Below are positions 22,751 through 60,487 of a stretch of DNA of 61,643 nucleotides, one piece after another (within the stretch, counting starts at the first letter, position 1; every line of letters starts with the position of its first letter). The stretch is from an uncultured Limosilactobacillus sp. GTDB lineage: Bacteria; Bacillota; Bacilli; Lactobacillales; Lactobacillaceae. The DNA lies in NCBI GenBank assembly GCA_944327195.1, contig CALVGV010000006.1:1-61643 (forward strand), written 5' to 3'. The translations under genes were made by a program, and so were the position numbers. The notes under the pieces are model-generated. The model saw only the letters and a list, made by a program, of their open reading frames with translations. It did not search any database and was not told the DNA's origin.

Positions 22751-22900
22751 GGGCCTCCGCTCCGCGAAAATTGCGGGCCGTGACGATGGTGGGCACAACT
22801 TTGAGCCCCTCCGGGTCTCAAAGCTTGGCCTTTCACTAGGCGGTAAACCGCCAAGTGAAATCTCACCATCTTGGCCCGCATTTTCGTTCCGCTCCGGCCC
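22751..22900 (+). repeat. Structured dispersed repeat, family 1, copy 1
   Basis: Starts four bases after the stop codon at 22746. Pairings: P1 22765-22779 with 22873-22886; P2 22785-22791 with 22864-22870; P3 22799-22805 with 22817-22823; P4 22831-22837/22839-22843 with 22848-22852/22854-22860, closed by a TAAA loop. P1 and P2 enclose the two hairpins P3 and P4, giving a closed branched shape. There is no T-run at the end. A weaker shared tail (GGCARC ... GGCCRCAACC) continues to about 22950. Confidence 0.85.
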
Positions 22901-23011
22901 GGCAACTTGACGGACGGGTGGCCGCGGTTTGAGTAGTGGCCGCAACCCTCTTTTCGATTACTATGTAACGGATAAAGATGCCACAAACCGTGGTGTTCCA
23001 TTTCATTGCAA

Positions 23012-23057
23012 GTCAAAACACCCTTAGTGCTGCGAGCTTTTGTAGCACTAAGGGTGT
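23012..23057 (-). terminator. Terminator between convergent transcription units
   Basis: A 15-bp stem (AACACCCTTAGTGCT with its complement). On the minus strand it is followed by TTTT, so it best serves the LysR gene that ends at 23392; on the plus strand only TTT follows. Confidence 0.7.
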
Positions 23058-23192
23058 TTCCCGTTATATATGAATGTACCGGTCAGATTAGGGGGCGGTA
23101 ATGAAAGTAACGTCTTGCGGCCGTGTGAAATTAGCGGGGAGGCGGGGGTTGTGGCCTTATCGCAATCAGCGGCCACTACTGCACTATAGTTG

Positions 23193-23386
23193 CCGGGGGC
23201 GGAGCGGGGGAGACCCGGAACCTCAGGGGTAGCGGGTTTCCCGCTTAGACCAAGGCCGAGCTTGAAGACCCGGCGGGGCTTCAAGTCGTGCCCACCCCGT
23301 TCCAGTGTTCCGGAAGCTCCCCCGCGGAGCCCCCTCTCTAACGTCACTATCGTCACGGTCCCGCCCCGTTCGCGGAGCGGAGGCCC
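23193..23386 (-). repeat. Structured dispersed repeat, family 1, copy 4 (divergent, composite)
   Basis: Read on the minus strand it begins six bases after the LysR stop codon with the same GGGCCTCCGCTCCGCG head. It keeps the P3 hairpin (CTTGAAG ... CTTCAAG) and a P4-position hairpin with another sequence (AGCGGG/CCCGCT). It also contains an inserted segment (GCTTCCGG ... ACTGGAACGGGGTGGGC) shared with the extra head unit of copy 2, so it looks like a recombined or nested element. The 645 bases between 22747 and 23391 hold this, copy 1 and one terminator but no gene. Confidence 0.7.
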
Positions 23387-23391
23387 TCCAC

Positions 23392-24291
23392 CTAGCGCCG
23401 CTCGGCCGACTTCGCCAGCCCATCCCAGAGGGCCTGCTTGGTCGGGGTCATCGGCACCGTCGTCCGGGTAACCGCCGAAACCAGGAAGGCCGGTTGCTCG
23501 GGGTCGGTCAGCGGAACCCTGACCACGTTATCCGAATCCAGCACCGCAAGGTCGGTCAGGTAGGCGATCCCCAAGTTGTCGGCAACCATCGACTTGAGGA
23601 TGTGGACGTCGTTGGTCTGGTAGAGCTTGCGCGGGCGGAAGTGGTTGTGCTGGGCCAAAAAGCGCAGCGCCTGCTGGTGAATGAACTCGTTTTCCCGGGC
23701 GAGGGTGAGGAAGGACTCGTTCTTCAGCTCGGCAAAGGCGACCCCGGTCTCGCGGCGCTTGGCCAGCGGGTGGTTCTTGGCGACGATGATCTCGATCGGG
23801 TAGGAGGCCAGCACCTCGGCGTGAAGGCGCGGGTAGGCCAGCGGGGCGGTCGAGCCGAGGAGGGCCATGTCGAGGTCCCCCTGCTGGACCATCTTTAATA
23901 GGTGGGCCGACCCGTACTCGAAGGACTCGATCTTGGGCATGATCCCGGCCTTCATCAGCTGGGGGGTCAGCGGCGGGAAGTAGTAGTTGCCGATGATCGG
24001 CGGCAGGCCGAAGCGGATGTTGGCCTCCTTGGAGTGGGCGATTTCCTTGCGGGCAACGGCAATCTCGTTCAAGATCGCCTGGGCGTGGAGGTAGAACTGC
24101 TGGCCGTCGCCGGTCACCCGCAACTCGCGGTGGGACTGGTCGCGGATGAAGAAGGCGGTCGCAAACTCCTTTTCCAGCCGCTTGATTGCCATCGTGATCG
24201 TCGGCTGGCTGACGCCAAATTTTTCGGCGACCTTAGAAAAATTTTTCAGTTCCACCAGGGCGCAATAATATTTGATGTCCTTTACGTTCAT
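23392..24291 (-). CDS. LysR-family regulator, likely MleR-type
   Basis: A 299-residue regulator with an N-terminal winged helix-turn-helix (NFSKVAEKFGVSQPTITMAIKRLE) and a LysR substrate-binding domain. It is divergent from two malolactic enzyme genes, the classic position of MleR, which activates malolactic fermentation in response to malate. The start at 24291 has GAGGTG seven bases upstream. The functional link is inferred from position. Confidence 0.88.
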   Translation of the reverse strand: MNVKDIKYYCALVELKNFSKVAEKFGVSQPTITMAIKRLEKEFATAFFIRDQSHRELRVTGDGQQFYLHAQAILNEIAVARKEIAHSKEANIRFGLPPIIGNYYFPPLTPQLMKAGIMPKIESFEYGSAHLLKMVQQGDLDMALLGSTAPLAYPRLHAEVLASYPIEIIVAKNHPLAKRRETGVAFAELKNESFLTLARENEFIHQQALRFLAQHNHFRPRKLYQTNDVHILKSMVADNLGIAYLTDLAVLDSDNVVRVPLTDPEQPAFLVSAVTRTTVPMTPTKQALWDGLAKSAERR

Positions 24292-24433
24292 CGGAAAACA
24301 CCTCAATTCCGGGATTTATCGCTGGTCATATCAACTATTATTATACCACGCGGCGTGGTTGACTATCCCTTTTTCCCGGGGCTAGACTGTGGGCGTTAAT
24401 TGGTTACGCGATTTGGAAAAAGAGGTAATTAGC

Positions 24434-26059
24434 ATGTCAAAAGCGATGGAAATCTTGAACAACCCCTTCATTAACAAGGGGACGGCCTTCACCCTGGAGG
24501 AACGCAAGCAGCTCGGCCTGCTCGGCGCCCTGCCGGCCAAGGTGCGGACCCTGCCGCAACAGGCCGAAGAGACCTACGCCCAGTTCAAGGACAAGCAACC
24601 GGGGATTGAGCAACGCAAGTTCTTGATGGAAGTCTTCAACACCAACCGGACCCTCTTCTTCTACCTGATGGGCCAACACATCGTTGAGTTCATGCCGGTG
24701 ATCTACGACCCGGTGATCGCCGAATCGATCGAAAACTACAGCGAACTCTTTATCCAACCGCAACAGGCGGCCTTCCTTTCGATTGACGACCCCGACGACG
24801 TCAAGGATCGGCTGAAGAACGCCGCCGACGGCCGGGACATCCAGCTGATCGTTGTCACCGACGGGGAGGGGATCCTCGGCATTGGTGACTGGGGGATCAA
24901 CGGGGTCGACATCTCGGTCGGCAAGCTGATGGTCTACACCGCCGCCGCCGGGATCGACCCGGCCAAGGTGCTGGCCGTCGGCATCGACGCCGGGACCAAC
25001 AACGAACTCCTCCTCAAGGACCCCGAATACCTGGGGCTCAAGCACAAGCGGGTCACCGGCGAGCGCTACTACGCCCTGGTCGACGAATTCGTTAAGGCCG
25101 CCAAGGAACTCTTCCCGGAGGCCCTCCTCCACTTCGAGGACTTCGGCCGCGACAACGCCGCCGTCATTCTCAACAAGTACAAGGACCAAATGATGGTCTT
25201 CAACGACGACATCCAGGGGACCGGGATCATTTCCCTGGCCGGGGTGCTCGGCGCCCTCAACATCTCCAAGGAAAAGCTGGCCGACCAGAAGTTCCTCACC
25301 TTCGGCGCCGGCACCGCCGGGATGGGGATCGCCAAGATGCTCTTTGACGAACTGGTTCGCCAGGGGATGGCGCCGGCCGAGGCCAAGAAGCACTTCTACC
25401 TGGTCGACGTCCAGGGCCTGCTCTTCGACGACACCGAGGGGCTGACGCCGGAACAAAAGCAGTTCACCCGCCAGCGGAGCGAATTTGCCAACGCCGATCA
25501 GCTGACCGACCTGCTTTCAATCGTCAAGGCGGTTCAACCGACGGTGATGATCGGGACCTCCAAGCAACCGGGCGCCTTCACCGAAGAAGTGGTTAAGGAA
25601 ATGGCCGCCCACACGGACCGGCCGATCATCTTCCCGATCTCCAACCCAACCAAGCTGATCGAGGCCCAACCAAAGGACATCCTCAAGTGGACCGACGGCA
25701 AGGCCCTGGTGGCCGCCGGGATTCCGGTGCCAAACGTCGAATTGAACGGCGTCACCTACCAGATCGGCCAGGCCAACAACGCCCTCGTTTACCCGGGGGT
25801 TGGCTTCGGGGCGATCGCGGCCAAGACCAAGGTGGTCAACGAAAAGATGCTGGCGGCGGCCGCCCACGCCCTCGGTGGGATCGTCGACCCCGACCAAGCC
25901 GGCGCCGCCGTCCTGCCGCCGGTGGCCAAGCTGCAATCCTTCACCACCAGGGTGGCCGAGATCGTGGCCCAGTCGGCCATCGACCAGGGGCTGGCCGACC
26001 CGAGCGTCACCGACGCCAAGCAGGCGGTGGCCGCACTGAAGTGGGAACCAAAGTACTAA
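24434..26059 (+). CDS. mleS: Malolactic enzyme (first of tandem pair)
   Basis: A 541-residue cytoplasmic NAD- and Mn-dependent enzyme that converts L-malate to L-lactate and CO2. It has the malolactic hallmarks: VIYDP with the catalytic Tyr (Y91), [13 protein letters not shown] (W153), metal ligands in HFEDFGRDN and FNDDIQGTG, and the Rossmann segment FGAGTAGMG. Length equals the known malolactic enzymes. The start at 24434 has AGAGGT upstream. A second, closely similar gene follows after 29 bases, so the two are probably one operon. No malate permease gene lies next to them. Confidence 0.93.
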
Positions 26060-26088
26060 ATTTTAAATTGGGGGAGTAGGCGAAGAAC

Positions 26089-27714
26089 ATGTCAAAAGCG
26101 ATGGAAATCTTGAACAACCCCTTCCTCAATAAGGGGACGGCCTTCACGGTCGAGGAACGGCGGCAACTGGGCCTCCTGGGCGCCCTGCCGCCGACGGTCC
26201 GGACCCTCCAGCAACAGGCGGAGGAAACCTACGCCCAATTCAAGGAAAAGGCCGCCGGGATCGAACAGCGCCAGTTCCTGATGGAGGTCTTCAACACCAA
26301 CCGGACCCTCTTCTTCTACCTGATGCGCCACCACATCGTCGAGTTCATGCCGGTGATCTACGCGCCGGTGATCGCCGAATCGATCGAAAACTACAGTGAC
26401 CTCTTCATCCAACCGCAACAGGCGGCCTTTCTCTCGATTGACGACCCGGCCGGGGTCCGCGACCGGCTGAAGAACGCCGCCGACGGCCGGGAGATCAAGT
26501 TGATCGTCGTCACCGACGGGGAGGGGATCCTCGGGATTGGCGACTGTGGGATCAACGGGGTCGACATCTCGATCGGCAAGCTGATGGTCTACACCGCGGC
26601 CGCCGGGATCGACCCGGCCAAGGTGCTGGCCGTCGGCATCGACGCCGGCACCAACAACCAGGCCCTCCTCAAGGACCCCGAATACCTGGGGCTCAAGCAC
26701 GAGCGGGTTACCGGCGCCAAGTACGACGCCCTGATCGACGAGTTCGTGACGGCCACCAAGGAGCTCTTCCCCGGGGCAATGCTCCACTTTGAGGACTTCG
26801 GCCGCGACAACGCCACCGTCATCTTAAACAAGTACCAAAACGAAGCCAAGGTCTACAACGACGACATCCAGGGGACCGGGATAGTCACCCTGGCGGCGGT
26901 GCTCGGCGCCCTCAACATTTCCAAGGAAAAGTTGGCCGACCAGAAGTTCTTGACCTTCGGGGCCGGCACCTCCGGGATGGGGATCGCCCGGATGCTCTAC
27001 GACGAGCTGGTTCGCCAGGGGATGGACCCGGCCGAGGCCAAGCAGCACTTCTACCTGGTCGACATCCAGGGCCTCCTCTTTGACGACACTGCGGGGCTGA
27101 CCCCGGAGCAGAAGCAGTTCACCCGCCAGCGGAGTGAGTTTGCCAACGCCGACGAATTGACCGACCTGCTCGCGATCGTCAAGGCGGTAAAGCCGACGGT
27201 GATGATCGGCACCTCGATGCAGGGGGGCGCCTTCACCGAAGCAGTGGTCAAGGAAATGGCAGCCCACACCGAGCGGCCGATCATCTTCCCAATCTCCAAC
27301 CCGACCAAGCTGATCGAGGCCCAGCCAAAGGACCTCCTCAAGTGGACCGACGGCAAGGCCCTGGTGGCCGCCGGAATTCCGGTGCCGGACGTGACGGTCA
27401 ACGGGGTGACCTACCGGATCGGCCAGGCCAACAACGCCCTCGTCTTCCCCGGGGTGGGCCTCGGGGCGATTGCGGCCAAGGCCAAGGTGGTCAACGGCAA
27501 GATGACCGCCGCGGCGGCCCACGCCCTCGGCGGGATCGTCGACCCGGACCAACCGGGCGCCGCCGTCCTGCCGCCGGTGGCCAAGCTCCAGTCCTTCACC
27601 ACCAAGGTGGCCGAGGTGGTGGCCCAGTCGGCAATCGACCAGGGCCTGGCCGACCCGAGCGTCACCGACGCCAAGCAGGCGGTGGCGGCACTGAAGTGGG
27701 AGCCGAAGTACTAG
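26089..27714 (+). CDS. Malolactic enzyme paralogue (second of tandem pair)
   Basis: Also 541 residues and nearly identical to its upstream neighbour along the whole length, so it arose by tandem duplication. The metal ligands ([18 protein letters not shown]) and the nucleotide-binding loop FGAGTSGMG remain. Two positions near the active site differ from the first copy: Asp92 after the catalytic Tyr is Ala (YAP), and Trp153 of GDWG is Cys (GDCG). These may change substrate preference or weaken the enzyme. It has GGGGG and a 5' spacer of 29 bases. It ends at a terminator at 27750-27790. Confidence 0.9.
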   Translation: MSKAMEILNNPFLNKGTAFTVEERRQLGLLGALPPTVRTLQQQAEETYAQFKEKAAGIEQRQFLMEVFNTNRTLFFYLMRHHIVEFMPVIYAPVIAESIENYSDLFIQPQQAAFLSIDDPAGVRDRLKNAADGREIKLIVVTDGEGILGIGDCGINGVDISIGKLMVYTAAAGIDPAKVLAVGIDAGTNNQALLKDPEYLGLKHERVTGAKYDALIDEFVTATKELFPGAMLHFEDFGRDNATVILNKYQNEAKVYNDDIQGTGIVTLAAVLGALNISKEKLADQKFLTFGAGTSGMGIARMLYDELVRQGMDPAEAKQHFYLVDIQGLLFDDTAGLTPEQKQFTRQRSEFANADELTDLLAIVKAVKPTVMIGTSMQGGAFTEAVVKEMAAHTERPIIFPISNPTKLIEAQPKDLLKWTDGKALVAAGIPVPDVTVNGVTYRIGQANNALVFPGVGLGAIAAKAKVVNGKMTAAAAHALGGIVDPDQPGAAVLPPVAKLQSFTTKVAEVVAQSAIDQGLADPSVTDAKQAVAALKWEPKY

Positions 27715-27749
27715 CTGCCGCTTAAACCCTCCCAATGAATAATGATTCC

Positions 27750-27790
27750 AAGCACCTCCAGGAACCGGGCGTTTCTGGGGGTGCTTTTTT
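27750..27790 (+). terminator. Intrinsic terminator of the malolactic operon
   Basis: AAGCACCTCCAG pairs with CTGGGGGTGCTT, then TTTTTT. Confidence 0.9.
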
Positions 27791-27834
27791 GGTTGCTGGC
27801 GGGGGAACTTTGGGGCGGAAAAGGCCGGTCGAAA

Positions 27835-27909
27835 TCTAAAGAGAGTCTAAAAGAAGTGTAAAAGAGAAAAATGAAGTCTAAAGCAGGTGTAAAAGAGGTG
27901 TAAAAAAAG
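27835..27909. promoter_or_regulatory. Array of six helically phased hexamers (TTTACA/TTTAGA on the minus strand)
   Basis: On the plus strand TCTAAA or TGTAAA occurs at 27835, 27846, 27857, 27877, 27888 and 27899. The steps are 11, 11, 20, 11 and 11 bases. Read on the minus strand these are TTTA(C/G)A boxes with five-base spacers, the layout bound by OmpR-type response regulators such as PhoP. The local DNA is AT-rich in a GC-rich genome. The nearest downstream genes are thrE (+, 259 bases on) and none on the minus strand, so the target is unclear. Confidence 0.55.
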
Positions 27910-28135
27910 ACGAGTGGATACTCTTGGCAGATAAGACAGTCGGCACCGGATTGAAGGAGTCAGACGAGGAAGAAAATCCGCTCTGGCTGGAAACTTATTC
28001 AAAACAGCTTGCTTGTTCTGTTGCTGGTAAAAACAGATTCCGCTTTCACATCTAAGTCGCGCAAAACTTGTCCTAAAATTGACGCACGCTTACATCCAAA
28101 GTCACCCGGCCAGCTCCGCCAAATTCTCGTATAAT
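27910..28135. promoter_or_regulatory. Remaining spacer upstream of thrE
   Basis: No convincing gene. A TATAAT (28130-28135) close to the start codon is the likely -10 for thrE; the -35 is weak. Between 28006 and 28051 an AAAACAG...CTGTT...AAACAG motif recurs. Confidence 0.4.
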
Positions 28136-28167
28136 AGGAAGCGAGTTTTTGAAATGGAGGCAGAAAA

Positions 28168-29505
28168 ATGGCAACCGAAGAAGCGGGGAATCAGTACCAG
28201 CACCACATGGCGATTCCCTGGCATGATTTTGTTACCGACGACAACGTTACTCCCGCCCGGGCGGCCAACATCGTTGAGCGCTCGGCGATCGTTGGCCGGA
28301 TTGGCCTGATGATGCTCGGCTGCGGCACCGGGGCCTGGCGGGTGCGTAACTCGATGAACGTCGCCGCCGAGACCCTGGGGATGACCTGCTCGGCCGACAT
28401 CGGCCTGGTTTCGATCGAATACACCTGCATGGACCACCACCGCAGCTACACCCAGGCCCTCTCCCTCCCCGGCACCGGGGTCAACACCGCCCGCCTCAAC
28501 GCCCTGGAGAACTACGTCCGCGACTTCGAGAAGAACGGTCACGACTGGACGACCGGCGAGATCCACCAGGCGCTCAACAAGATCGAGCACATCGGCGGCC
28601 TCTACGCTCCCTGGATGGTGGGCCTGGCAGCGGCGCTGGCCTGCTCGGCCTTCGTTTTCCTCCTCGGCGGCGGCCCGGTCGAGATGCTCTGCTCCTTTTG
28701 CGGGGCCGGCCTGGGCAACTTCGTCCGCCGCAAGATGATCGACCACAAGCTGACCCTCTTTGCCTGCATCGCCGTCGCCGTGGCGGCCGCCTGCGTGACC
28801 TACGCCGGCTGCTTCAGCCTGGTCCTGCACTTCTTGCACGTCAATTCCCACCACGAGGCTGGCTACATCGGGGCGATGCTCTTCGTCATTCCCGGCTTCC
28901 CCTTCATCACCAGCGGGCTTGACCTTTCCAAGCTCGACATGCGGTCCGGCCTGGAGCGGGGAGCCTTTGCCCTGATCGTGATCACCGTCGCCACCCTGGT
29001 CGGCTGGGTGGTGGCGATGGTCATGCACCTGCAACCGGAAAACTTCATCCCGCTGGCCCTCTCGCCGCTGACCTACCTGCTCTTGCGGCTGGTCTTCAGC
29101 TTCTGCGGGGTCTTCGGCTTCTCGATCATGTTCAACTCCAGCCCGAAGATGGCCGCCACCGCCGGCCTGATCGGCGCCCTGGCCAACACCCTGCGGCTGG
29201 AAATGGTCGACCTCTGGAACGTTCCCGCCGGACCGGCCGCCTTCACCGGGGCGCTGCTGGCCGGCCTGCTGGCCTCGCTGGCCCGCAGCCGGGTCGGCTA
29301 CCCGCGGATTGCGATCACCGTGCCGTCAATCGTCATCATGGTGCCTGGCCTCTACATGTACTCGGCCGTCTACAACATCGGCCTCAACTCGCTCAACGTC
29401 GGTGCCACCTGGATGGCCAAGGCGGCCTTGATCATCGTCTTTTTGCCGCTCGGCCTGATTGCCGCCCGGATCATCACCGACCCGAAGTGGCGCTACAAGA
29501 GCTAG
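28168..29505 (+). CDS. ThrE-family threonine/serine exporter
   Basis: A 445-residue membrane protein. The N-terminal cytoplasmic/ThrE domain holds the TCSADIGLVSIEYTC-type region and the segment HDWTTGEIHQALNKIEH, followed by about ten helices that cover the ThrE and ThrE_2 parts in one chain. In other organisms these can be two genes; here they are fused, as in ThrE of actinobacteria. It should export threonine and serine driven by the proton gradient. GGAGG lies seven bases before the start. The next gene begins 12 bases on. Confidence 0.88.
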   Translation: MATEEAGNQYQHHMAIPWHDFVTDDNVTPARAANIVERSAIVGRIGLMMLGCGTGAWRVRNSMNVAAETLGMTCSADIGLVSIEYTCMDHHRSYTQALSLPGTGVNTARLNALENYVRDFEKNGHDWTTGEIHQALNKIEHIGGLYAPWMVGLAAALACSAFVFLLGGGPVEMLCSFCGAGLGNFVRRKMIDHKLTLFACIAVAVAAACVTYAGCFSLVLHFLHVNSHHEAGYIGAMLFVIPGFPFITSGLDLSKLDMRSGLERGAFALIVITVATLVGWVVAMVMHLQPENFIPLALSPLTYLLLRLVFSFCGVFGFSIMFNSSPKMAATAGLIGALANTLRLEMVDLWNVPAGPAAFTGALLAGLLASLARSRVGYPRIAITVPSIVIMVPGLYMYSAVYNIGLNSLNVGATWMAKAALIIVFLPLGLIAARIITDPKWRYKS

Positions 29506-29517
29506 GGGGAACTTATC

Positions 29518-30168
29518 ATGCAAATTCACTATCCCCAAGCCCTGGTTGACCGGGTGCGCCGGGCAACCACCGGCCGCAAGCTGACCGGCGAGTACGTGCC
29601 GGGGGAGGGACCGGTCCCGGCCAAGCTGGCCCTGATCGGCGAGGCCCCGGGCCGCACCGAAATTGCGACCGGCCACCCCTTCGTCGGCGCCGCCGGCAAG
29701 GAGCTCGACCGCAACCTCGCCCTGGCCAGCCTGACCCGCCCGGAAATCTTCATCACCAGCGTCGTCCGCGCCCGGCCTTACAGCCGCCCCAAGGCCAAGG
29801 CAACCGCGCCGGTCACCGCCCTGCCCAACCGGACGCCGACCAAGAAGGAGGTGGCCGCCTTCGCTCCGCTCTTTGACTGGGAGCTGGCGGCCATTGGCGC
29901 CCCCGTTTTGGTGGTGATGGGCAACACCGCCCTCCAGCGCCTCCTCGGCCCGACGGCCACGATCGGCACCCTCCACGGCCAGGTCCTCCACCAGCCGGTC
30001 CTCGAGTGGCGGGCGGGAAAATATTGCCCGGGAAATAAGTCCTACTGGCTGGTGCCGATGTACCACCCGGCGGCCACCCTCTACGCCCGCAAGCTGACGC
30101 CAACCGTTGAGGCCGACTGGCGGGCCCTGGGGGAGTGGCTGAAGAAGCACCCGCTGGCGGATACCTGA
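29518..30168 (+). CDS. Uracil-DNA glycosylase-like protein
   Basis: A 216-residue protein of the uracil-DNA glycosylase superfamily. Motif 1 is GEAPGRTEIATGHPFVG and the His-containing motif near the C-terminus is MYHPAA. The cysteines that bind the 4Fe-4S cluster in family 4 enzymes are absent (only one Cys is seen), so it belongs to a cluster-free branch common in lactobacilli. It would remove uracil or deaminated bases from DNA. It is probably co-transcribed with thrE, with no functional link evident. Confidence 0.82.
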   Translation: MQIHYPQALVDRVRRATTGRKLTGEYVPGEGPVPAKLALIGEAPGRTEIATGHPFVGAAGKELDRNLALASLTRPEIFITSVVRARPYSRPKAKATAPVTALPNRTPTKKEVAAFAPLFDWELAAIGAPVLVVMGNTALQRLLGPTATIGTLHGQVLHQPVLEWRAGKYCPGNKSYWLVPMYHPAATLYARKLTPTVEADWRALGEWLKKHPLADT

Positions 30169-30228
30169 TCACCCCGCCAGTTACAAAGAATTACCCTGGT
30201 GGCCCATCGCCGGCCGCCTCAAGGACGA

Positions 30229-30260
30229 GGGGGAGCGCTCGGTAGCTCCCCCTTGCCTTT
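30229..30260 (+). terminator. Intrinsic terminator
   Basis: GGGGGAGC pairs with GCTCCCCC around an 8-nt loop, followed by a weak T-rich stretch, before the MFS gene. Confidence 0.65.
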
Positions 30261-30288
30261 GCCTACACCAACAAGAGGAGATTTTAAA

Positions 30289-35753: not shown

Positions 35754-35935
35754 AGAGGCTGGGAAGAGACTCATCTCTTCCCAGCCTCTTTCTGCCTTCT
35801 TCTAATGTTACTCTGCAATCGCGGAAAAAAGGGCGCTCCTAGCAGCTAAGCCAGAACGAACTCCGGCCCGGTCCCCGTGCCAAAGCCCGTTCTCACTTAG
35901 CTGTACGGAGCGCTTAGAACCTTTTCCCAGCCTCT
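35754..35935 (+). repeat. Dispersed 3' repeat module, family 2, copy A
   Basis: A terminator (GAGGCTGGGAAGAG, 35755-35768, with 35775-35788) is followed by a conserved core (35801-35925) and by a second CCCAGCCTC arm (35926-35934) that could also pair with the first arm. Within the core GCGCTCC/GGAGCGC, AGCTAAG/CTTAGCT and AGAACG/CGTTCT are nested complementary segments forming a long hairpin. On the minus strand the core stem is followed by six T residues. Almost the same module occurs at 52598-52775. Confidence 0.8.
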
Positions 35936-42574: not shown

Positions 42575-42600
42575 AGCTCCGGTTTTGCCGGGGCTTTTTA
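42575..42600 (+). terminator. Intrinsic terminator of the exporter operon
   Basis: AGCTCCGG pairs with CCGGGGCT around a 5-nt loop, followed by TTTTTA. Confidence 0.85.
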
Positions 42601-42611
42601 CATAGGAGCGG

Positions 42612-42801
42612 GGGCCTCCGCTCCGCAGCTTCCGGGAGACTGGAACGGGGTGGGCCTCCGCTCCGCGAAAATCGGGGGCCGTAACGATGGTGGGCACGAC
42701 TTTGAGCCCCTCCGGGTCTCAAAGCTCGGCCTTTCACTAGGCGATAAATCGCCAAGTGAAACTTCACCATCTTGGCCCCCGTTTTCGCTCCGCTCCGGCC
42801 C
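42612..42801 (+). repeat. Structured dispersed repeat, family 1, copy 2 (with an extra head unit)
   Basis: The complete copy spans 42652-42801. P1 is CGAAAA-T-CGGGGGCC with GGCCCCCG-TTTTCG, P2 GATGGTG/CACCATC, P3 CTTTGAG/CTCAAAG, P4 TTTCACT-A-GGCGA-TAAA-TCGCC-A-AGTGAAA. Relative to copy 1, two P1 pairs and one P4 pair are changed on both sides. A partial head (42612-42651) precedes it and is shared with the insert of copy 4. It lies 43 bases after the exporter operon stop codon, behind a terminator. No gene is seen in 42569-43343. Confidence 0.85.
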
Positions 42802-52597: not shown

Positions 52598-52775
52598 GAG
52601 GCTGGGAAGAAGCTTATTTCTTTCCAGCCTTTTTCTTCTCCTAATATTACTCTGCAATCGCGGTAAAAAAGGGCGCTCCTAGCAGCTGCGCAAGAACGAA
52701 CTCCGGCCCGGTCCCCGTGCCAAAGCCCGTTCTCACTTAGCTATACGGAGCGCTTAGAACCTTTTTTACCAGCTT
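52598..52775 (+). repeat. Dispersed 3' repeat module, family 2, copy B
   Basis: The same layout as the module at 35754: terminator GGCTGGGAAGA.../TTTCCAGCC (52600-52630), core from CTAATATTACTCTGC (52641) to GCTTAGAACC (about 52762). The core differs from copy A at few positions (for example AGCTGCGCAAG for AGCTAAGCCAG). That change breaks one inner pairing. It follows the PAP2 gene by seven bases. Confidence 0.8.
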
Positions 52776-52811
52776 CTTTTTTTTCCAGCCAAGCGCGGAG
52801 CGGGGGACGAT

Positions 52812-52874: not shown

Positions 52875-52897
52875 AAATACTTCAGGGAGGAATAACA

Positions 52898-53869
52898 ATG
52901 GCAACGATTAAGGATGTGGCGGCGGCGGCCGGCGTCTCGGTCTCGACGGCCTCGCGCGCCCTCAACGATAACCCGCGGATCAGCACGGCCACGGTTGCCA
53001 AGGTTAAGGCGGCCGCGGCCCAGCTCAACTACCAGCCCAACCGCCTGGCCCGCACCCTCTCGACCGGGGAGGCGCGGATGGTGGGGGCGATCTTCCCGGT
53101 CACCGGCGAAACCGCCCCGGCCAACCCCTTCCAGTTGGACATTATCCGCGGGGCCAACTCGCTCTTGGCCGACCGCGACTACGTGTTGGCAACGGCGATC
53201 TGCCAGGACGAGGAGAGCCTTCTCCACAACGTGCGGGCGATGGTCGAGCAGGCCAAGATCCACAACTTCCTCGTCCTCTACACCAAGCAGGCCGACCCGG
53301 TGACCGCCTACCTGCGCAAGACCGGGCAAAACTTCGTCATCATTGGCCAGCCGGCCGAGGAGGAGGACCGTTACATTAACAACGACAACGTCCTCGCTGG
53401 CCAGAAGGCGACCCACCACCTCTGCGCCGACCACCGGGTCCACCAGCCGGTGCTGATCCGCAGCGCCAACGGCTGGGCCTACGAGCTCGACCGCGAACGC
53501 GGCTTTCGCGCCGAGCTGGCCCAGTACGGCCGGGTGCCGCTGGTCTTCCAATTGACGGTCGACGATCCGACGGCCTTCTTTGCCGCCCACCCGGAAGTGG
53601 ACGGCCTGCTGGCGACCGACGACATCAGCATGCTGACCTTCTTCAACCAGCTGGGGAGCGCCCAGTTGCGGGCGCCGCTGACCTGGCCGGCGGTCTGCTT
53701 TAACCGCAGCCGCCTGCTCAGCCTGGCCAGCCCCCAGGTCGATAAGGTCGATATGCTGCCACGTCAGCTGGGGGCCAGGGCGGTTGACCTGCTCTTCGAT
53801 CGCCAGCGCACCCACCAGCTGGTCGGCTTCAAGATCCTCGAGGCCGACGAGGCCGAATCGCTTGCCTGA
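52898..53869 (+). CDS. malR: LacI-family regulator of the maltose operon
   Basis: A 323-residue repressor. The helix-turn-helix opens the protein (ATIKDVAAAAGVSVSTASRALNDNPRI) and is followed by the hinge and a periplasmic-binding-like sugar domain. It precedes the maltose permease and enzymes, and LacI-type palindromes lie between it and them. Control by maltose or maltodextrin is inferred from the context. AGGGAGG lies upstream. Confidence 0.9.
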   Translation: MATIKDVAAAAGVSVSTASRALNDNPRISTATVAKVKAAAAQLNYQPNRLARTLSTGEARMVGAIFPVTGETAPANPFQLDIIRGANSLLADRDYVLATAICQDEESLLHNVRAMVEQAKIHNFLVLYTKQADPVTAYLRKTGQNFVIIGQPAEEEDRYINNDNVLAGQKATHHLCADHRVHQPVLIRSANGWAYELDRERGFRAELAQYGRVPLVFQLTVDDPTAFFAAHPEVDGLLATDDISMLTFFNQLGSAQLRAPLTWPAVCFNRSRLLSLASPQVDKVDMLPRQLGARAVDLLFDRQRTHQLVGFKILEADEAESLA

Positions 53870-53904
53870 CAAGCGGTTGACACAAATTGAAAGCAAAAAA
53901 ATTT

Positions 53905-53966
53905 CCCGGCACCGGGGCGCCCCACAAATTCAAGCGGGGCAAGCACCGGCGCCGGGTTTTTCTTTT
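53905..53966 (+). terminator. Intrinsic terminator of malR
   Basis: CCCGGC pairs with GCCGGG, with inner GGGGC/GCCCC pairing, then TTTTTCTTTT. Confidence 0.8.
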
Positions 53967-53974
53967 GAAAATCG

Positions 53975-54063
53975 TGCAATCGCTTGCAAAAGTTTTGTGC
54001 AAACGGTTGCGCAAATTGGGTGATTTTGCTATATTATTAACCGAAAGATTTCTGAAGCGCTTC
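53975..54063 (+). promoter_or_regulatory. Promoter and operators of the maltose operon
   Basis: TTGCGC (54007-54012), 17 bp, TATATT (54030-54035). Two similar LacI-type palindromes, TGCAATCGCTTGCA (53975-53988) and TGCAAACGGTTGCG (53998-54011), are centred 23 bp apart and the second overlaps the -35. A third, GAAGCGCTTC (54054-54063), lies downstream of the start and is also close to cre. Joint control by the adjacent LacI protein and CcpA is likely. Confidence 0.75.
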
Positions 54064-54153
54064 CACAAATCTCTTGCAATTATTCTTTGTTGAATTACTC
54101 AATGGATTCAAAGCCTGGTCTGACCGGCTTTGACTTGGAGGAAATGAACTGTT

Positions 54154-55503
54154 ATGGATGCAAAAAAAGGTAAAAAGCAATTACCATCATTAGCGTTCTC
54201 GACGTTGATGCTGATGACCTTCGGGAACCTCGGTACTTCCATGGCCTTCGCTTTGCAAAGTTCAAACATGGGGCGGATCTTCCAAACCCTGGGTGCGGAC
54301 CCAACGAAGCTCGGCTTCTTCTTCATCTTGCCACCGCTGGCCGGGATGGTTGTTCAACCATTAGTTGGTTACTTCTCTGACCGGACCTGGGCACCAAAGC
54401 TCGGTGGCCGGCGGCTTCCGTACCTGATCTTGGGGACGATCGTTGCCGTTATCGTGATGTGCCTGTTGCCAAACTCCGGGAGCTTCGGCTTTAAGACGAC
54501 CGCCGCTCTCTGGTTCGGGGCCGTTTCGATCCTCTTCATGGACCTCTCCTCGAACATGTCGATGCAACCATTCAAGATGATGATCTCGGACATGGTTAAC
54601 GACGAGCAAAAGGACCAGGCATGGTCTTGGCAAACGATCTGGGGGAACATCGGGTCCGTCGCTGCCGACCTCTTCCCGTTCTTCCTGACCTTCCTCGGGG
54701 TTGCCAACGTGGCCTCCGCCGGGGAACTGCCGGACTCCGTTAAGTGGTCCTTCTACATCGGGGCAGCCCTGCTGGTGATCACTTCGGCCTTCACGATTTG
54801 GAAGGTTGACGAATACGACCCGAAGACTTACGCCAAGTACCACGGGTTGGACGAAAACGAAGAAGTCAGTGGCAACATTTGGGAAATCGTTAAGAACGCG
54901 CCAAAGGTATTCTGGACGCTTGGGTTAGTTGAATTCTTTAGTTGGGCTGCTTTCCAGTACCTGTGGACTTACGGGACCGGGACGGTTGCCCAAAACATCT
55001 GGCACACGACCAAGGCCGCCTCGGCTGCTTACCAAGAAGCCGGGAACTGGTTCGGGGTTCTGTCCGCCGTTGAAGTTGGGGTCGCCATTATTTGGGGGCT
55101 GGTTCTTTCCCGGCTCAACGACAAGCTGCGTAAGCCGGCCTACTCCTTCGGGTTGGTTGTGGGGGCCCTTGGTTTCTGGGGCCTGGCCGTTGCACCAACC
55201 AAGCTGTGGTCCTTCATTGCCTTCATCGCAATCGGGATGTGCTGGGTTTCAATCAACTCAATTCCGTTCACCATCCTTACCAACGCCCTCGACGGGAAGC
55301 ACGACGGGACTTACATGGGGCTCTTCAACAGTTGGATCTGCCTGCCGCAAATCTGTGCCTCAATTATTTCCTTCGCCCTCTACCCGGCCCTCGGCAACTA
55401 CATGCCACACATGCTGACCACTTCAGCAATTCTGGCACTCTGCGGGGCAGTTGCGGTCTTCGTTGTTAAGGAAACCTCAGTTGAAAAAGGGGACATTGAC
55501 TAA
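54154..55503 (+). CDS. MFS/GPH-like maltose or oligosaccharide transporter (SLC45-like)
   Basis: A 449-residue, 12-helix transporter. The YFSDRTWAPKLGGRRLPY loop (motif A-like) and the NMSMQPFKMMISDMV helix resemble SLC45-type sugar:H+ symporters. It is the first gene of an operon with GH13, GH65 and beta-PGM, so maltose or maltodextrin import is likely. It uses more T-ending codons than most neighbours, in line with strong expression. The GH13 gene starts two bases after its stop codon. Confidence 0.88.
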   Translation: MDAKKGKKQLPSLAFSTLMLMTFGNLGTSMAFALQSSNMGRIFQTLGADPTKLGFFFILPPLAGMVVQPLVGYFSDRTWAPKLGGRRLPYLILGTIVAVIVMCLLPNSGSFGFKTTAALWFGAVSILFMDLSSNMSMQPFKMMISDMVNDEQKDQAWSWQTIWGNIGSVAADLFPFFLTFLGVANVASAGELPDSVKWSFYIGAALLVITSAFTIWKVDEYDPKTYAKYHGLDENEEVSGNIWEIVKNAPKVFWTLGLVEFFSWAAFQYLWTYGTGTVAQNIWHTTKAASAAYQEAGNWFGVLSAVEVGVAIIWGLVLSRLNDKLRKPAYSFGLVVGALGFWGLAVAPTKLWSFIAFIAIGMCWVSINSIPFTILTNALDGKHDGTYMGLFNSWICLPQICASIISFALYPALGNYMPHMLTTSAILALCGAVAVFVVKETSVEKGDID

Positions 55504-55505
55504 CC

Positions 55506-57275
55506 ATGAACTTTGCGGGAATTTACCACCGGCCAGAAAGCGAAATGGCCTTCCTCTATGATGCGGAGACGATGCGGATTCGCTTGCGGACGGAAAAAGA
55601 CGATGTAAAAGAAGTCAACCTACTTCACGGTGACCCATACAGCTTACGAAGCTTGGCGGGAATTAAGCCGCCCTTTTATTCGGCCCCGACGCCGATGCAA
55701 AAGATCCTGAGTGATGGCACTTTCGATTACTGGCAACTGGCGGTAAAGGAACCCAAGCGACGGTTAGCCTACGCCTTTGACCTCACCGGCGTGGACGGCA
55801 GTCACTGGATTTACACCGACAAGGGCTTCATTCAGCCAACCGACAAGAAGCTGTTGGATGACATGAACACCTACTTCCGGATGCCCTTCTTCCAGGACAT
55901 TGACGCCTTCCACGCGCCGGAATGGGTTAAGGACACGGTCTGGTACCAAATTTTCCCGGAGCGGTTTGCCAACGGTGATCAAAGCAACGATCCGGAAGGT
56001 GCCAAGCCGTGGAACGCAAGCGACCACCCCGGTCGGCAAGACTTTTACGGGGGTGACTTGCAAGGGGTGCTCGACCACCTCGATCACCTGGTTGACCTGG
56101 GGGTAAACGGGATTTACTTCAACCCGATCTTCAAGTCACCAACGAACCACAAGTACGATACGGAAGACTACTTCCAAATTGATCCCCACTTCGGGAATGC
56201 GGAGCTGTTCAAGAAGCTGGTTCAGGAGGCCCATAAGCGGGGGATCAAGGTGATGCTCGACGCCGTTTTCAACCACATTGGTGATCAATCGCCGCAGTGG
56301 CAAGACGTGCTGAAGAATGGGGAGCAATCGCAGTACGCCGATTGGTTCCACGTTCACCAGTTCCCGGCGACCTACACGCCGACGGAGAACTTCGAATTCA
56401 CCCCTGACGCTACCTACGACACCTTCGACTACACCCCGCACATGCCGAAGCTAAACACGGCAACGCCGGCGGTGCAGGAGTACCTGTTGAAGATTGCCCG
56501 CTACTGGGTGGAAGAATTCGACATTGATGCTTGGCGGCTCGACGTGGCCAACGAAATTGACCACCACTTCTGGCGGCGGTTCCACCAGGAAATGGTCAGC
56601 TTGAAACCGGACTTCTACATCTTGGGGGAAATCTGGACCACGTCCCAGCCGTGGCTGAACGGCGACGAGTTCAGCGCGGTAATGAACTACAGTTACACGG
56701 GAGCAATCCTCAACCACTTCATCGACCACAGCCTTGATGCCAAGCAGATGGTGGAAGAACTAAGTAGCCTGCTGATGACCTACCGCGACCAAACGAACCA
56801 GCTGATGTTCAACGTCTTGGACTCCCACGATACCGCGCGGATCAAGACGTTGGCGCACGACAACGAGGACCTGGTTCGTCAGACCTTTGCCTTCACCTTC
56901 TTGCAACCGGGGGTTCCGTCGATCTATTACGGGACGGAGTACGGGATGACTGGGGAAAACGACCCCGATTGCCGGAAGCCGATGAACTGGCAGCCGAACG
57001 AGGCCGCAAAGGCGATGTTTGCCTCCCTGCAAACCCTGGTCAAGTTCCGCCACGATTACTGGCAAGAAATTGAAGAGGGCACGATTCAATTTACGGTTCA
57101 GGATGACGGCTTACTGGTAGTCCGCCGCAGGCTGGCTAACCGGGAATTGGTTGGCTACTTCAACACGACCGGCAAGCCACTTGCGGTCCCGGAAAGCGGG
57201 GAAGCGGTGGTCAGCCAAAACCTTGATGGAAAGCAACTCGCAGCAGACGGCTTCGTAGTCTACAAGAACAACTAG
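55506..57275 (+). CDS. GH13 alpha-glucosidase/neopullulanase-type enzyme
   Basis: A 589-residue cytoplasmic enzyme, no signal peptide, for cutting maltodextrins. An N-terminal carbohydrate-binding domain (about 1-125) precedes the catalytic barrel. The catalytic residues are nucleophile Asp in WRLDVANE (D346), acid/base Glu in LGEIW (E375) and Asp in LDSHDTAR (D439). These fit the maltogenic amylase/neopullulanase subfamily. Its products would feed the maltose phosphorylase downstream. Confidence 0.92.
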   Translation: MNFAGIYHRPESEMAFLYDAETMRIRLRTEKDDVKEVNLLHGDPYSLRSLAGIKPPFYSAPTPMQKILSDGTFDYWQLAVKEPKRRLAYAFDLTGVDGSHWIYTDKGFIQPTDKKLLDDMNTYFRMPFFQDIDAFHAPEWVKDTVWYQIFPERFANGDQSNDPEGAKPWNASDHPGRQDFYGGDLQGVLDHLDHLVDLGVNGIYFNPIFKSPTNHKYDTEDYFQIDPHFGNAELFKKLVQEAHKRGIKVMLDAVFNHIGDQSPQWQDVLKNGEQSQYADWFHVHQFPATYTPTENFEFTPDATYDTFDYTPHMPKLNTATPAVQEYLLKIARYWVEEFDIDAWRLDVANEIDHHFWRRFHQEMVSLKPDFYILGEIWTTSQPWLNGDEFSAVMNYSYTGAILNHFIDHSLDAKQMVEELSSLLMTYRDQTNQLMFNVLDSHDTARIKTLAHDNEDLVRQTFAFTFLQPGVPSIYYGTEYGMTGENDPDCRKPMNWQPNEAAKAMFASLQTLVKFRHDYWQEIEEGTIQFTVQDDGLLVVRRRLANRELVGYFNTTGKPLAVPESGEAVVSQNLDGKQLAADGFVVYKNN

Positions 57276-57296
57276 TGAAAGGGAAGAGTGTTACAC

Positions 57297-59549
57297 ATGA
57301 AACAAACTTTTGACATTGCGCCATGGCACGTGAAGACGACCAAGTGGGCGCCAGAAGACAAGCGGCTCCAGGAATCGATGACCAGCCTGGCCAACGAAAA
57401 CCTGGGGATGCGGGGCTTCTTTGAAGAAGGTTACTCCGGCGACTGCATGGAAGGGGTCTACCTCGGCGGCGTTTGGTTCCCGGACAAGACCCGGGTCGGC
57501 TGGTGGAAGAACGGCTACCCGAAGTACTTCGGCAAGATGATCAACGCGGTCAACTTCCTCAAGTTGCCAATCAGCGTCAACGGCGAGGCCCTCGACCTGG
57601 CCAAGCAGGAACCGAGTGACTTCGCCCTCGACCTCGACATGAAGGCCGGCACCTTCACCCGTTCCTTCACCGCCGAAGTTGGCGGCGCCAAGCTCCACTT
57701 CGAGTTTGTCCGCTTCGTTTCCGCCGTTCAAAAGGAACTGGTTGGCCAAAAGGTCACCATCAAGAACCTCAGCGACCAGCCGGTTAAGCTGGAGGTAACC
57801 AGCGAAATCGACGGCGACGTTTACAACGAAGACGCCAACTACGACGAACAATTCTGGGATGTTCTGGACGCCAAGGCCGACGGCAAGCACGCCCTGCTGG
57901 TTTCCAAGACCAAGCCAAACGACTTCGGCACCCCGCAGTTCACGGTTGCCATGAAGACGACCACCCTGACCGACCTCGCCCACGCCAGCGACCAGGCCGC
58001 GGGCAAGAGCGCGGCCAACCTCTTTGCCGGCGAACTGGCCGCCGGGGCCGAAACGGTGGTGGAAAAGCGGACCGTCGTTGCCACCTCCCGTGACTTTGAC
58101 ACCCAAGAAGAACTGGTTGCCCGGGTCGACGAACTGACCAAGACGCTTGACGACCAGGCCTTCGCCGACCTGCTCAAGGCCCACGAAGCCGAATGGCAAT
58201 CCCGCTGGGACAAGTCCGACGTCAAGATCAACGGCGACGAAGGGGCCCAACAGGGGATTCGCTTCAACCTCTTCCAGCTCTTTTCGACTTACTACGGCAA
58301 CGACTACCGCCTCAACATCAGTCCAAAGGGCTTCACCGGCGAGAAGTACGGTGGGGCAACCTACTGGGACACCGAGGCCTACTGCCTGCCGGTTTACCTC
58401 GGGGTTTCCAACGCCGAGATCTCGCGCAACCTCTTGATGTACCGCTATAACCAACTCGACGGCGCCTACGTCAACGCCAAGGAACAGGGGCTCAAGGGGG
58501 CCCTCTACCCGATGGTTACCTTCAACGGGATCGAATGCCACAACGAATGGGAAATCACCTTTGAAGAAATCCACCGCAACGGCGACATCGCCTACGCCAT
58601 CTACAACTACACCAACTACACCGGCGACAAGTCCTACGTCCTCCACGAAGGGGCCAAGGTGCTGACCGAAATTTCCCGCTTCTGGGCCGACCGGGTTCAC
58701 TACTCACAACGGGCCAACAAGTACATGCTCCACGGGGTTACCGGGCCAGACGAATACGACAACAACGTCAACAACGACTGGTACACCAACCTCCTTTGCC
58801 AATGGACGCTCAAGTACACCCTCGAAATCCTGGAAGAAGTCGACGCCGACGTGGCGGCCGACCTGGCAGTCAGCGAGGACGAAAAGCGCAAGTGGAAGTC
58901 AATCGTTGACAACATGTACCTGCCGTACGACGAAGAACGGCGGATCTTCCCGGAAAACGACGGCTTCATGGACAAGGACCTCGTGCCAGTTGGCGAAATC
59001 CCGAGCGACCAACTGCCGCTCAACCAAAACTGGTCGTGGGACAAGATCCTTCGCTCCCCGTACGTTAAGCAGGGGGACGTCATCCAGGGGATCTGGGACT
59101 TCATGGACGACTACACCTACGAAGAAAAGAAGCGCAACTTCGACTTCTACGAACAGTTCACCGTCCACGAATCCAGCCTGTCGGCCTCGGTTTACTCCGT
59201 TATTGCCGCTGACATTGGCTACGAGGACAAGGCCGTGGAAATGTACGAACGCTCGGCCCGGCTCGACCTTGACAACTACAACAACGACACGGCCGACGGG
59301 CTCCACATCACTTCGATGACCGGGAGCTGGATCGACATCGTGCAGGGCTTCGCCGGGATGCGGGTTCGCGACGGCAAGCTCCACTACGCCCCGTTCCTAC
59401 CGAAGAAGTGGGATTCCTACCAATTCCGTCAGCAGTTCCGTGGCCGGGTAATCGAAGTCACGGTCGACAAGGACGGCGCCAAGGCCGAACTGATCAGTGG
59501 GGAACCGCTGGTAATCGACATGGCCGGCAAGGACCTCGAACTCAAGTAG
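57297..59549 (+). CDS. mapA: Maltose phosphorylase (GH65)
   Basis: A 750-residue cytoplasmic enzyme that splits maltose with phosphate to glucose and beta-glucose 1-phosphate, saving ATP. The general acid Glu is in GVTGPDEYDNNVNND (E486). The substrate-recognition segment GATYWDTEAYCLPVYL and the C-terminal beta-sheet domain are present. The start at 57297 has GGAAGAG upstream; a TTG at 57288 is less likely. It precedes the beta-phosphoglucomutase that uses its product. Other GH65 phosphorylases (kojibiose, trehalose) are possible but the context favours maltose. Confidence 0.93.
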   Translation: MKQTFDIAPWHVKTTKWAPEDKRLQESMTSLANENLGMRGFFEEGYSGDCMEGVYLGGVWFPDKTRVGWWKNGYPKYFGKMINAVNFLKLPISVNGEALDLAKQEPSDFALDLDMKAGTFTRSFTAEVGGAKLHFEFVRFVSAVQKELVGQKVTIKNLSDQPVKLEVTSEIDGDVYNEDANYDEQFWDVLDAKADGKHALLVSKTKPNDFGTPQFTVAMKTTTLTDLAHASDQAAGKSAANLFAGELAAGAETVVEKRTVVATSRDFDTQEELVARVDELTKTLDDQAFADLLKAHEAEWQSRWDKSDVKINGDEGAQQGIRFNLFQLFSTYYGNDYRLNISPKGFTGEKYGGATYWDTEAYCLPVYLGVSNAEISRNLLMYRYNQLDGAYVNAKEQGLKGALYPMVTFNGIECHNEWEITFEEIHRNGDIAYAIYNYTNYTGDKSYVLHEGAKVLTEISRFWADRVHYSQRANKYMLHGVTGPDEYDNNVNNDWYTNLLCQWTLKYTLEILEEVDADVAADLAVSEDEKRKWKSIVDNMYLPYDEERRIFPENDGFMDKDLVPVGEIPSDQLPLNQNWSWDKILRSPYVKQGDVIQGIWDFMDDYTYEEKKRNFDFYEQFTVHESSLSASVYSVIAADIGYEDKAVEMYERSARLDLDNYNNDTADGLHITSMTGSWIDIVQGFAGMRVRDGKLHYAPFLPKKWDSYQFRQQFRGRVIEVTVDKDGAKAELISGEPLVIDMAGKDLELK

Positions 59550-59675
59550 GATTACGACGCAAATACCAATCAAGTTAAGTTCCGCCGGATGCATCGACAA
59601 CCTTTCCATTCGGGGACGAAGGGAAAGCGGGCCGCGCGCGGTGCCGCTTTTCCGCAGTTTAAGGAGGAGAATACC

Positions 59676-60338
59676 ATGAAGTTTGCAGATTTGAAGGGCT
59701 TTGCCTTTGACCTCGACGGCGTGATCGCCGACACCGCCAAGTTCCACAGCCAGGCCTGGCACCAAACGGCCGACAAGGTGGGCACCACCTGGACGCCGGA
59801 ATTGCAAGAGGCCCTGAAGGGGGTCAGCCGGATGGACTCGCTGGAAATGATCCTGAAGGCCGGCGGCCACGAAAGCGACTACACCCAGGAAGAAAAGGAA
59901 GCCCTGGCGGCCGAAAAGAACGACAACTACGGCAAGCTGATCGCCACTTTGACCCCGGCCGACATCCTGCCGGGGATGCAGGCCTTCCTCGACGAGCTGC
60001 GCGAAAAGGGCTACAAGCTCTCGCTGGCCTCGGCCTCCAAGAACGCGCCGAAGATCCTCAAGTACCTCGGTTTGACCGACTACTTCGTCGGCGTGGTTGA
60101 CCCGGCAACCCTTTCCGCCGGCAAACCGGACCCGGAAATCTTCGCCCGGGCGGCCGAAATTCTCGACCTGCCAGCCAACCAGGTTGCGGGGCTGGAAGAC
60201 TCCGCCGCCGGGATCAAGTCGATCAACGGCGCCAGCGAGCTTTCGATTGGGATTGGCGATCAACTGAGCGAGGCCGCGGTTCGCTTCAGCGACACCTCGC
60301 AGGTTAGCCTGGCGAACATTGAGGCTGCTTTGCGGTAG
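59676..60338 (+). CDS. pgmB: Beta-phosphoglucomutase (HAD family)
   Basis: A 220-residue enzyme converting beta-glucose 1-phosphate to glucose 6-phosphate. The HAD motif FDLDGVIADT (with nucleophile and acid/base Asp) is at residues 10-19, the cap domain follows, and the motifs with Ser, Lys and Asp (SASKN, GKPDPE, LEDSAAG) are intact. GGAGGAG lies upstream. It links maltose phosphorolysis to glycolysis. Its stop codon abuts a family 1 repeat. Confidence 0.95.
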   Translation: MKFADLKGFAFDLDGVIADTAKFHSQAWHQTADKVGTTWTPELQEALKGVSRMDSLEMILKAGGHESDYTQEEKEALAAEKNDNYGKLIATLTPADILPGMQAFLDELREKGYKLSLASASKNAPKILKYLGLTDYFVGVVDPATLSAGKPDPEIFARAAEILDLPANQVAGLEDSAAGIKSINGASELSIGIGDQLSEAAVRFSDTSQVSLANIEAALR

Positions 60339-60487
60339 GCCTCCGCTCCGCGAAAATTGCGGGCCGTGACGATGGTGGGCACAACTTGAAGCCCCGTTCC
60401 GGGTCTTCAAGCTTGGCCTTTCACTAGGCGATAAATCGCCAAGTGAAATTTCACCATCTTGGCCCGCATTTTCGCTCCGCTCCGGCC
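60338..60487 (+). repeat. Structured dispersed repeat, family 1, copy 3
   Basis: Begins at the last base of the beta-PGM stop codon. P1 matches copy 1 (CGAAAATTGCGGGCC with GGCCCGCATTTTCG), P4 matches copy 2 (GGCGA-TAAA-TCGCC), and P3 has changed on both sides to CTTGAAG/CTTCAAG. With the tail and the terminator at 60601-60650 this fills the 343 bases to the next gene. Confidence 0.85.

What the first reader, a model, noticed from the sequence alone, without database searches (positions are those of the whole stretch)
22751..60487. Dispersed structured repeat (family 1) placed right after stop codons, with covarying stems
Copies at 22751-22900 (+), 42652-42801 (+), 60338-60487 (+) and a divergent one at 23386-23193 (-). 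Each runs in the direction of the gene before it and starts 0-6 bases after the stop codon, or 43-84 bases after it behind a terminator. Three copies fold into the same closed shape, an outer stem (P1, P2) around two hairpins (P3, P4). Differences between copies are compensated on both sides: P1 TGCGGGCC/GGCCCGCA against CGGGGGCC/GGCCCCCG (two pairs), P4 GGCGG/CCGCC against GGCGA/TCGCC (one pair, TAAA loop kept), P3 CTTTGAG/CTCAAAG against CTTGAAG/CTTCAAG (two pairs). Selection on structure, not sequence drift, fits best. It may be a 3' RNA element, a REP-like element moved by an unseen enzyme, or a new non-coding RNA class.
Basis: seen in the sequence. Interest (0 to 1): 0.88.

Follow-up and report, generated by a model that had tools for sequence, protein, structure and literature searches.

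The report
Folded ends of a lactobacillus transposon
The repeats are folded, inward-facing ends of short jumping DNA elements found in many lactobacilli; in the best-studied group the elements insert into the stop signals behind genes, which would explain why copies lie just after genes.

Summary
The repeat is real and structured. The window's genome (G000) has 83 covariance-model hits; 96 of 397 genomes of its family have it; Rfam does not name it. 28 of 50 base pairs carry compensated changes; 0 of 500 shuffles reach that.

It is not a gene-directed 3' RNA. Close neighbours face each other in 74 of 86 cases and face away in 0; in tandem gene gaps orientation is even, 43:40. The unit is a short transposon with two folded, inward-facing ends. 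In Companilactobacillus-type genome G173 some units have outer repeats matching a rare ISL3-family insertion sequence, 7-8 bp target duplications, and sit in terminator-like hairpins; one site is empty and intact in three relatives. The window copy at 60337 is absent from the same gene end in 11 of 11 relatives read.

Open: the mover in G000 (the ISL3 enzyme matched 3 of 397 genomes) and what the fold does. G-U and A-C cells are 103:133 against 12:0 in tRNAs, so selection on the sense RNA is unsupported. Verdict: new variant of a MITE-like element.

The parts
22751..22900 (+). Intact end module (subtype GGCCTCCGCTCCGCGAA), 4 nt after the TAG stop of the gene at 19900-22746
22901..23195 (.). 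Interior between the two facing modules
23016..23061 (.). Terminator-like hairpin in the interior (15-bp arm, 7 G-C pairs); a loose count of such hairpins in the 17 interiors of this genome does not exceed shuffles
23196..23333 (-). Diverged second end module (subtype GGGGCTCCGCGGGGGAGC), facing the first
   Evidence: 70.1 bits, E 8.9e-13
23340..23391 (-). 5' fragment of a module just outside the second module; its outer end touches the stop codon of the gene at 23392-24291 (-). Inner limit approximate
42575..42599 (+). Terminator of the upstream gene (stop 42568), by eye
42610..42651 (+). 5' fragment of another module subtype, directly before the intact copy
42652..42801 (+). Intact end module; no second module found within 1 kb
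60337..60488 (+). Intact end module overlapping the TAG stop (60336-60338) of the gene before it; absent at this gene end in 11 of 11 relatives read

Best explanation
The repeat is the end module of a family of short non-autonomous transposons (MITE-like). The two-ended unit has a left and a right module of about 140-165 nt that differ in sequence but share one fold (a long stem carrying two hairpins), both pointing inward, around a short interior. Single modules, 5' fragments and nested copies are taken as remnants or rearrangements (inferred). In Companilactobacillus-type genome G173 the unit lies between outer inverted repeats; it was most likely moved in trans by an ISL3-family transposase that inserts into intrinsic-terminator hairpins and makes 7-8 bp duplications. 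Shown from sequence: matching ends, duplications, target, empty site. Inferred: that this enzyme moved them. Gene 3' ends are thus hit preferentially and insertions elsewhere are lost (inferred). In the window's genome similar two-ended units lie behind stop codons or terminators; their mover is unknown. The fold is kept by selection at both ends; since neither strand is clearly favoured it more likely acts as folded DNA, for example for an end-binding protein, than as sense RNA (inferred, the weakest step).
For: Facing pairs: 37 of 42, 20 of 20 and 17 of 24 close neighbours convergent, 0 of 86 divergent. Left and right modules of one G173 element are 63-77% identical yet share the fold, 36 of 55 pairs compensated. 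Outer repeats at both ends in 11 of 40 G173 loci; of these, 7-8 bp exact duplications in 4, 5 bp in 2. Two ISL3-family IS with the same ends, duplications GTTTTGCC and CATCTGA, also in terminator-like hairpins; transposase 608-609 aa, NF033550 E 1e-71 and 5e-67. Empty site of L257 with intact terminator in 3 relatives. Window copy at 60337 absent in 11 of 11 relatives read. Split hairpin above the 95% control level in 8 of 13 sites, above 99% in 5. Kept mismatches: A.A in P4 37 of 37, TCC/TCC loop 36 of 37.
Against: 29 of 40 G173 loci lack recognisable outer repeats at both ends, and 5 of the 11 that have them show no duplication. The transposase matched only 3 of 397 genomes, one a fragment with a stop, all in one genus, not G000. 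The two ISL3 elements carry no module of their own, so the module is not needed by that enzyme in cis. No outer repeats or duplications could be made out for G000 pairs (by eye) and hardly any outside Companilactobacillus. 12 of 86 close neighbours point the same way. Interior terminator hairpins are only partly supported: 14 of 20 in G173 against 99 of 200 shuffled, 17 of 17 in G000 against 147 of 170.
Confidence: 0.72

Rival explanations
1. A cis-acting RNA in the 3' untranslated region: transcripts of the upstream gene run into the module, which folds and protects or processes the mRNA end.
For: 17 of 80 G000 hits start within 15 nt of a same-strand stop; gaps between convergent genes hold 21 hits, between divergent genes 5; strong covariation.
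Against: Orientation even in tandem gaps, 43:40; facing pairs; G-U not above A-C, 103:133 against 12:0 in tRNAs; absent at the orthologous gene end in 11 of 11 relatives.
Confidence: 0.08
2. An insulator part of transposons: modules face inward so that transcription coming from outside is stopped or its RNA made unreadable before it reaches the transposase or the neighbour gene.
For: Inward orientation; a module lies between end and transposase gene of an ISLre2-type IS; terminator-like hairpins in many G173 interiors, 12 of 20 with 16-bp arms.
Against: Predicts a sense-RNA excess of G-U, not seen; the ISL3 IS do without modules.
Confidence: 0.2
3. REP-like elements moved as single-stranded DNA by a RAYT (Y1) transposase.
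For: Intergenic hairpin repeats, often as inverted pairs; no clear strand preference.
Against: Target duplications and ISL3-type ends in G173; modules of about 150 nt are much longer than REPs (length of REPs recalled). RAYT genes were not searched for.
Confidence: 0.06
4. Compensated changes arise only from palindrome correction during replication, without selection.
For: Near-equal G-U and A-C cells.
Against: Specific mismatches and loops are kept: A.A 37 of 37, TCC/TCC 36 of 37; same fold at ends 63-77% identical.
Confidence: 0.05

Closest known systems
BOX, RUP and SPRITE repeats of Streptococcus pneumoniae (PMC3049150, passages seen)
   Same: Small interspersed, strongly folded intergenic repeats, over-represented between convergent genes, taken as non-autonomous mobile elements; RUP proposed to be moved in trans by an IS; elements inserted into one another (PMC10969869, passages seen).
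   Different: Here two facing modules of different sequence share a two-hairpin fold with compensated changes across 12 genera; one group sits in terminator hairpins and matches ISL3 ends. No sequence comparison with BOX, RUP or SPRITE was made.
MITEs in general (PMC10969869, passages seen)
   Same: Short, no transposase of their own, terminal inverted repeats, target duplications, AT-rich intergenic sites, related to an IS (G173).
   Different: The folded subterminal modules are conserved across genera where the outer repeats are not.
ISL3 family insertion sequences (Pfam PF01610, NCBIfam NF033550)
   Same: Matching outer repeats, 7-8 bp duplications and terminator-like target in G269 and G312.
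   Different: The transposase is 608-609 aa (the NCBIfam model has 370 positions) and the IS carries no module.
ISLre2-type IS annotated ISLca4 (plasmid NZ_CP033886.1)
   Same: Carries one module just inside its end, facing inward.
   Different: Different transposase; only one end has a module.
Parvovirus (AAV) terminal repeats (recalled)
   Same: About 145 nt, a stem with two side hairpins, inverted at the two ends.
   Different: Analogy of shape only; no shared sequence or machinery shown.

Membership tests
MITE | No transposase gene of its own | tested here: met
   0 of 134 modules overlap a called gene; G173 units read are about 400-740 bp; long-spaced pairs L194 and L122 hold no transposase by gene call
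MITE | Terminal inverted repeats like those of an IS | tested here: met
   G173 only: 11 of 40 loci, matching the ISL3 IS of G269 and G312. Not seen in G000 and hardly outside Companilactobacillus
MITE | Target site duplication | tested here: met
   G173: 7-8 bp in 4 of 11, 5 bp in 2, none in 5. Not made out in G000
MITE | Empty sites in relatives | tested here: met
   One G173 locus, 3 relatives; window 60337, absent in 11 of 11
ISL3 family (for the proposed mover) | ISL3 transposase domain | tested here: met
   PF01610 95 and 83 bits, NF033550 over its cut-off in both
ISL3 family (for the proposed mover) | Movement of the elements by this enzyme | not testable with these tools
   Only ends, duplications and target compared
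REP/RAYT | Y1 (RAYT) transposase in the genome | not tested
   No search for it was made
Known RNA family (Rfam 15) | Match over the gathering score | tested here: not met
   Window and 14 other loci: hits only to tRNA and T-box outside the module
Sense-strand structured RNA | G-U pairs clearly above A-C mismatches | tested here: not met
   103:133 over 135 modules, 10:14 in G000 without one invariant G-U pair, 94:68 in G173, 40 of the G-U from one invariant pair; tRNA control 12:0

The most novel reading that the evidence does not exclude
A folded end module (one stem, two hairpins, in outline like a parvovirus terminal repeat) is a portable part shared by unrelated bacterial transposons: ISL3-driven short elements, an ISLre2-type IS, and the unassigned elements of the window's genome. 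It would be read as folded DNA by a common host or element factor, a kind of end recognition I know of in no such bacterial transposon.
Probability: 0.22. Interest if true: 0.85.

Novelty: new variant of a known kind. Interest (0 to 1): 0.6.

Why it matters
It would name a common structured repeat of Lactobacillaceae (96 of 397 genomes sampled), show that strong covariation within a dispersed repeat can mark transposon ends rather than an RNA gene, and give a testable case of transposons that land in intrinsic-terminator hairpins. If the fold is needed for movement, it would be a new kind of end recognition.

Tried and rejected
Rfam: no family over the module. Phages: no match; viral contigs: 0 for one pattern. 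ISLre2 transposase (PF06782) in 13 genomes of the G173 genus: 0, but the control rang nowhere, so inconclusive. Long-spaced pairs as autonomous elements: L194 and L122 hold no transposase by gene call. Outer repeats outside Companilactobacillus: mostly chance-level alignments. Palindrome repair as sole cause: rejected, mismatches are kept. First split-terminator test was crude: 13 of 13 observed but 78% of controls also had 8 or more pairs across the junction (means 20.8 and 14.9); one search replaced it. First tRNA control by aragorn (G-U 7, A-C 5, other 15 of 119 cells) was unreliable because ends were misplaced; one search replaced it. Interior terminators: count barely or not above shuffles. 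A whole G173 element found no plasmid match; the ISL3 transposase matched 6 plasmids at 25-26% identity, none of Lactobacillaceae.

Literature: nine searches listed no paper whose title or abstract start describes this family. I saw passages only of PMC10969869, PMC3049150 and PMC2267715 (it treats Lactobacillus johnsonii among 40 genomes; its families were not compared with ours). Most subscription papers are not held.

Rows dropped: 3 weakest of 83 G000 hits (one search used 80); 1 of 135 named hits, cut by a contig end (one search used 134); 8 of 99 G173 hits not listed by the tool (one search used 91). Of 51 G173 hits without a close partner I fetched 20. One search used 30 of 55 tRNA hits, 21 distinct. 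One search read 11 of the 39 relatives matched.
Full report
1. The observation. It is a 5' fragment plus a diverged module at 23196-23333 (-). One copy as BLAST query found 47 matches in the window's genome (1.79 Mb, 52 contigs). A covariance model from 37 copies of this genome and one plasmid copy found 83 hits at E <= 0.01.

2. The fold. The consensus has 50 pairs: an outer stem with TCC/TCC internal loops, an asymmetric inner loop, and two hairpins. 28 of 50 pairs carry compensated changes and 97.9% of cells pair; none of 500 shuffles reaches either value. In G173 the left and right modules of one element are only 63-77% identical but share the fold; 36 of 55 pairs are compensated over 40 modules. 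Unpaired positions are kept too: the A.A mismatch in P4 in 37 of 37, one TCC/TCC loop in 36 of 37.

3. Distribution. By the model, 5 of 50 genomes of the same genus, G000 included, and 96 of 397 of the family, 12 of 40 genera. The named scan returned 80 loci from Companilactobacillus, Levilactobacillus, Lacticaseibacillus, Schleiferilactobacillus, Pediococcus, Lactiplantibacillus and uncultured Lactobacillus; that the family is Lactobacillaceae follows from these names. G196, of the same genus as G173, has a hit on a contig of the same length and at the same position as a named Companilactobacillus suantsaicola contig, so I call that genus Companilactobacillus (inference). The genus of G000 was not determined. 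No match in phages or, for one pattern, in viral contigs. In plasmids two matches: one lies inside an IS annotated as ISLre2-like ISLca4, between its end and the transposase gene, facing inward; the other shares the flanking sequence read, but no transposase is annotated there. Two chromosomal copies have the same flanks (L067, L071).

4. The unit is two-ended. Among neighbouring hits within 1 kb the left-right orientation is convergent in 37 of 42 (named loci), 20 of 20 (G173) and 17 of 24 (G000); the other 12 point the same way and none of 86 is divergent. By eye the two modules of a pair differ in subtype in G173 and in 11 of 17 G000 pairs. A G173 locus counted as single can hide a damaged second module: L257 does. 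Interiors: 12 of 20 in G173 hold a hairpin with 16-bp arms followed by T; the looser count is 14 of 20 against 99 of 200 shuffled, and 17 of 17 in G000 against 147 of 170, so interior terminators are likely in G173 and not established in G000.

5. Position relative to genes. With my own gene caller, 0 of 134 named hits overlap a gene by more than 60 nt. Gaps between convergent genes hold 21 hits, between divergent genes 5, against 56 and 57 such gaps. In tandem gaps the hit follows the stop in 43 and faces the start in 40. In G000 50 of 80 follow a same-strand gene and 30 do not; 17 lie within 15 nt of a stop, 13 of these TAG (called genes 93 of 184; p 0.03).

6. Movement. In G173, 11 of 40 loci have recognisable outer repeats at both ends (GGTTCTTTCTTAAG...). 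Exact 7-8 bp duplications flank four of them (two in register, two shifted by 1-2 nt), 5 bp two, and five show none. For L257 the pre-insertion site is unbroken, with its terminator hairpin, in three relatives (G237, G424, G284; 89-91% over 518-520 query bases); more distant ones have another terminator there. In the window, the copy at 60337 overlaps the stop of a gene whose orthologues in 11 of 11 relatives read show no module and an ordinary gene end; 40 of 50 genomes, G000 included, had matched the gene.

7. Target. The rejoined sites look like intrinsic terminators: AAAA within 45 nt on the left in 12 of 13 and TTTT within 45 nt on the right in 12 of 13 (11 elements, 2 IS; weak criteria in AT-rich DNA). 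A hairpin at the junction scores above the 95% level of swapped flanks in 8 of 13 and above 99% in 5.

8. The likely mover. Among ISL3-family hits in 13 genomes of that genus, two loci (G269, G312) have the same ends as the elements, duplications GTTTTGCC and CATCTGA, and themselves split terminator-like hairpins. The transposase is 608-609 aa, ISL3 by Pfam and NCBIfam. In the family sample it matched 3 of 397 genomes, one a fragment, all in that genus, so it can explain one genus only. Neither IS contains a module; a weak hit (E 0.046) lies beside the IS in L282.

9. Which strand. If the sense RNA were under selection, G-U should far exceed A-C. Over 135 modules: 103 and 133 (p 0.06); G000: 10 and 14 apart from one invariant G-U pair; G173: 94 and 68, 40 of the G-U from one invariant pair. 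21 tRNAs of G173 gave 12 and 0 in two stems. Cells are not independent; P2 leans to G-U (21:11), P1 and P4 to A-C (24:45 and 6:31). No clear strand is favoured; a DNA-level role is the likelier reading, not proven.

10. Prior work. Nine full-text searches listed no description of this family. Nearest are BOX, RUP and SPRITE (passages) and MITEs in general (passages). Statements on REP length and AAV ends are recalled.

Noticed in passing
G000 contigs C5:48694, C10:37055, C14:54194, C31:4330, C33:19253 (loci L113, L038, L041, L029, L039): A second structured stretch of about 120 nt (TGCGAATGTTACTTAG...GGCGAACCGC) interrupts hairpin P3 at the same place in five copies.
   Followed up: partly
window 42610-42651 and about fifteen other G000 places: 5'-only fragments of about 40 nt, cut near GGT/GGGC, stand directly before full copies without the rest of the old copy downstream (number by eye).
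   Followed up: no
G000 copies, just inside the module's 3' end: Two kinds of sequence follow the module: GGCAAC...CTGCTTGTGA...CAACAACC, and GGTGGTACC, the latter resembling the T-box motif (motif recalled).
   Followed up: no
L283 800-2925: The ISL3-type IS seems inserted in a terminator-like hairpin inside another element: a second pair of similar outer repeats surrounds it.
   Followed up: no
window 35825-35925 and 52665-52765: A 101-nt direct repeat, 96% identical, not part of this family.
   Followed up: no
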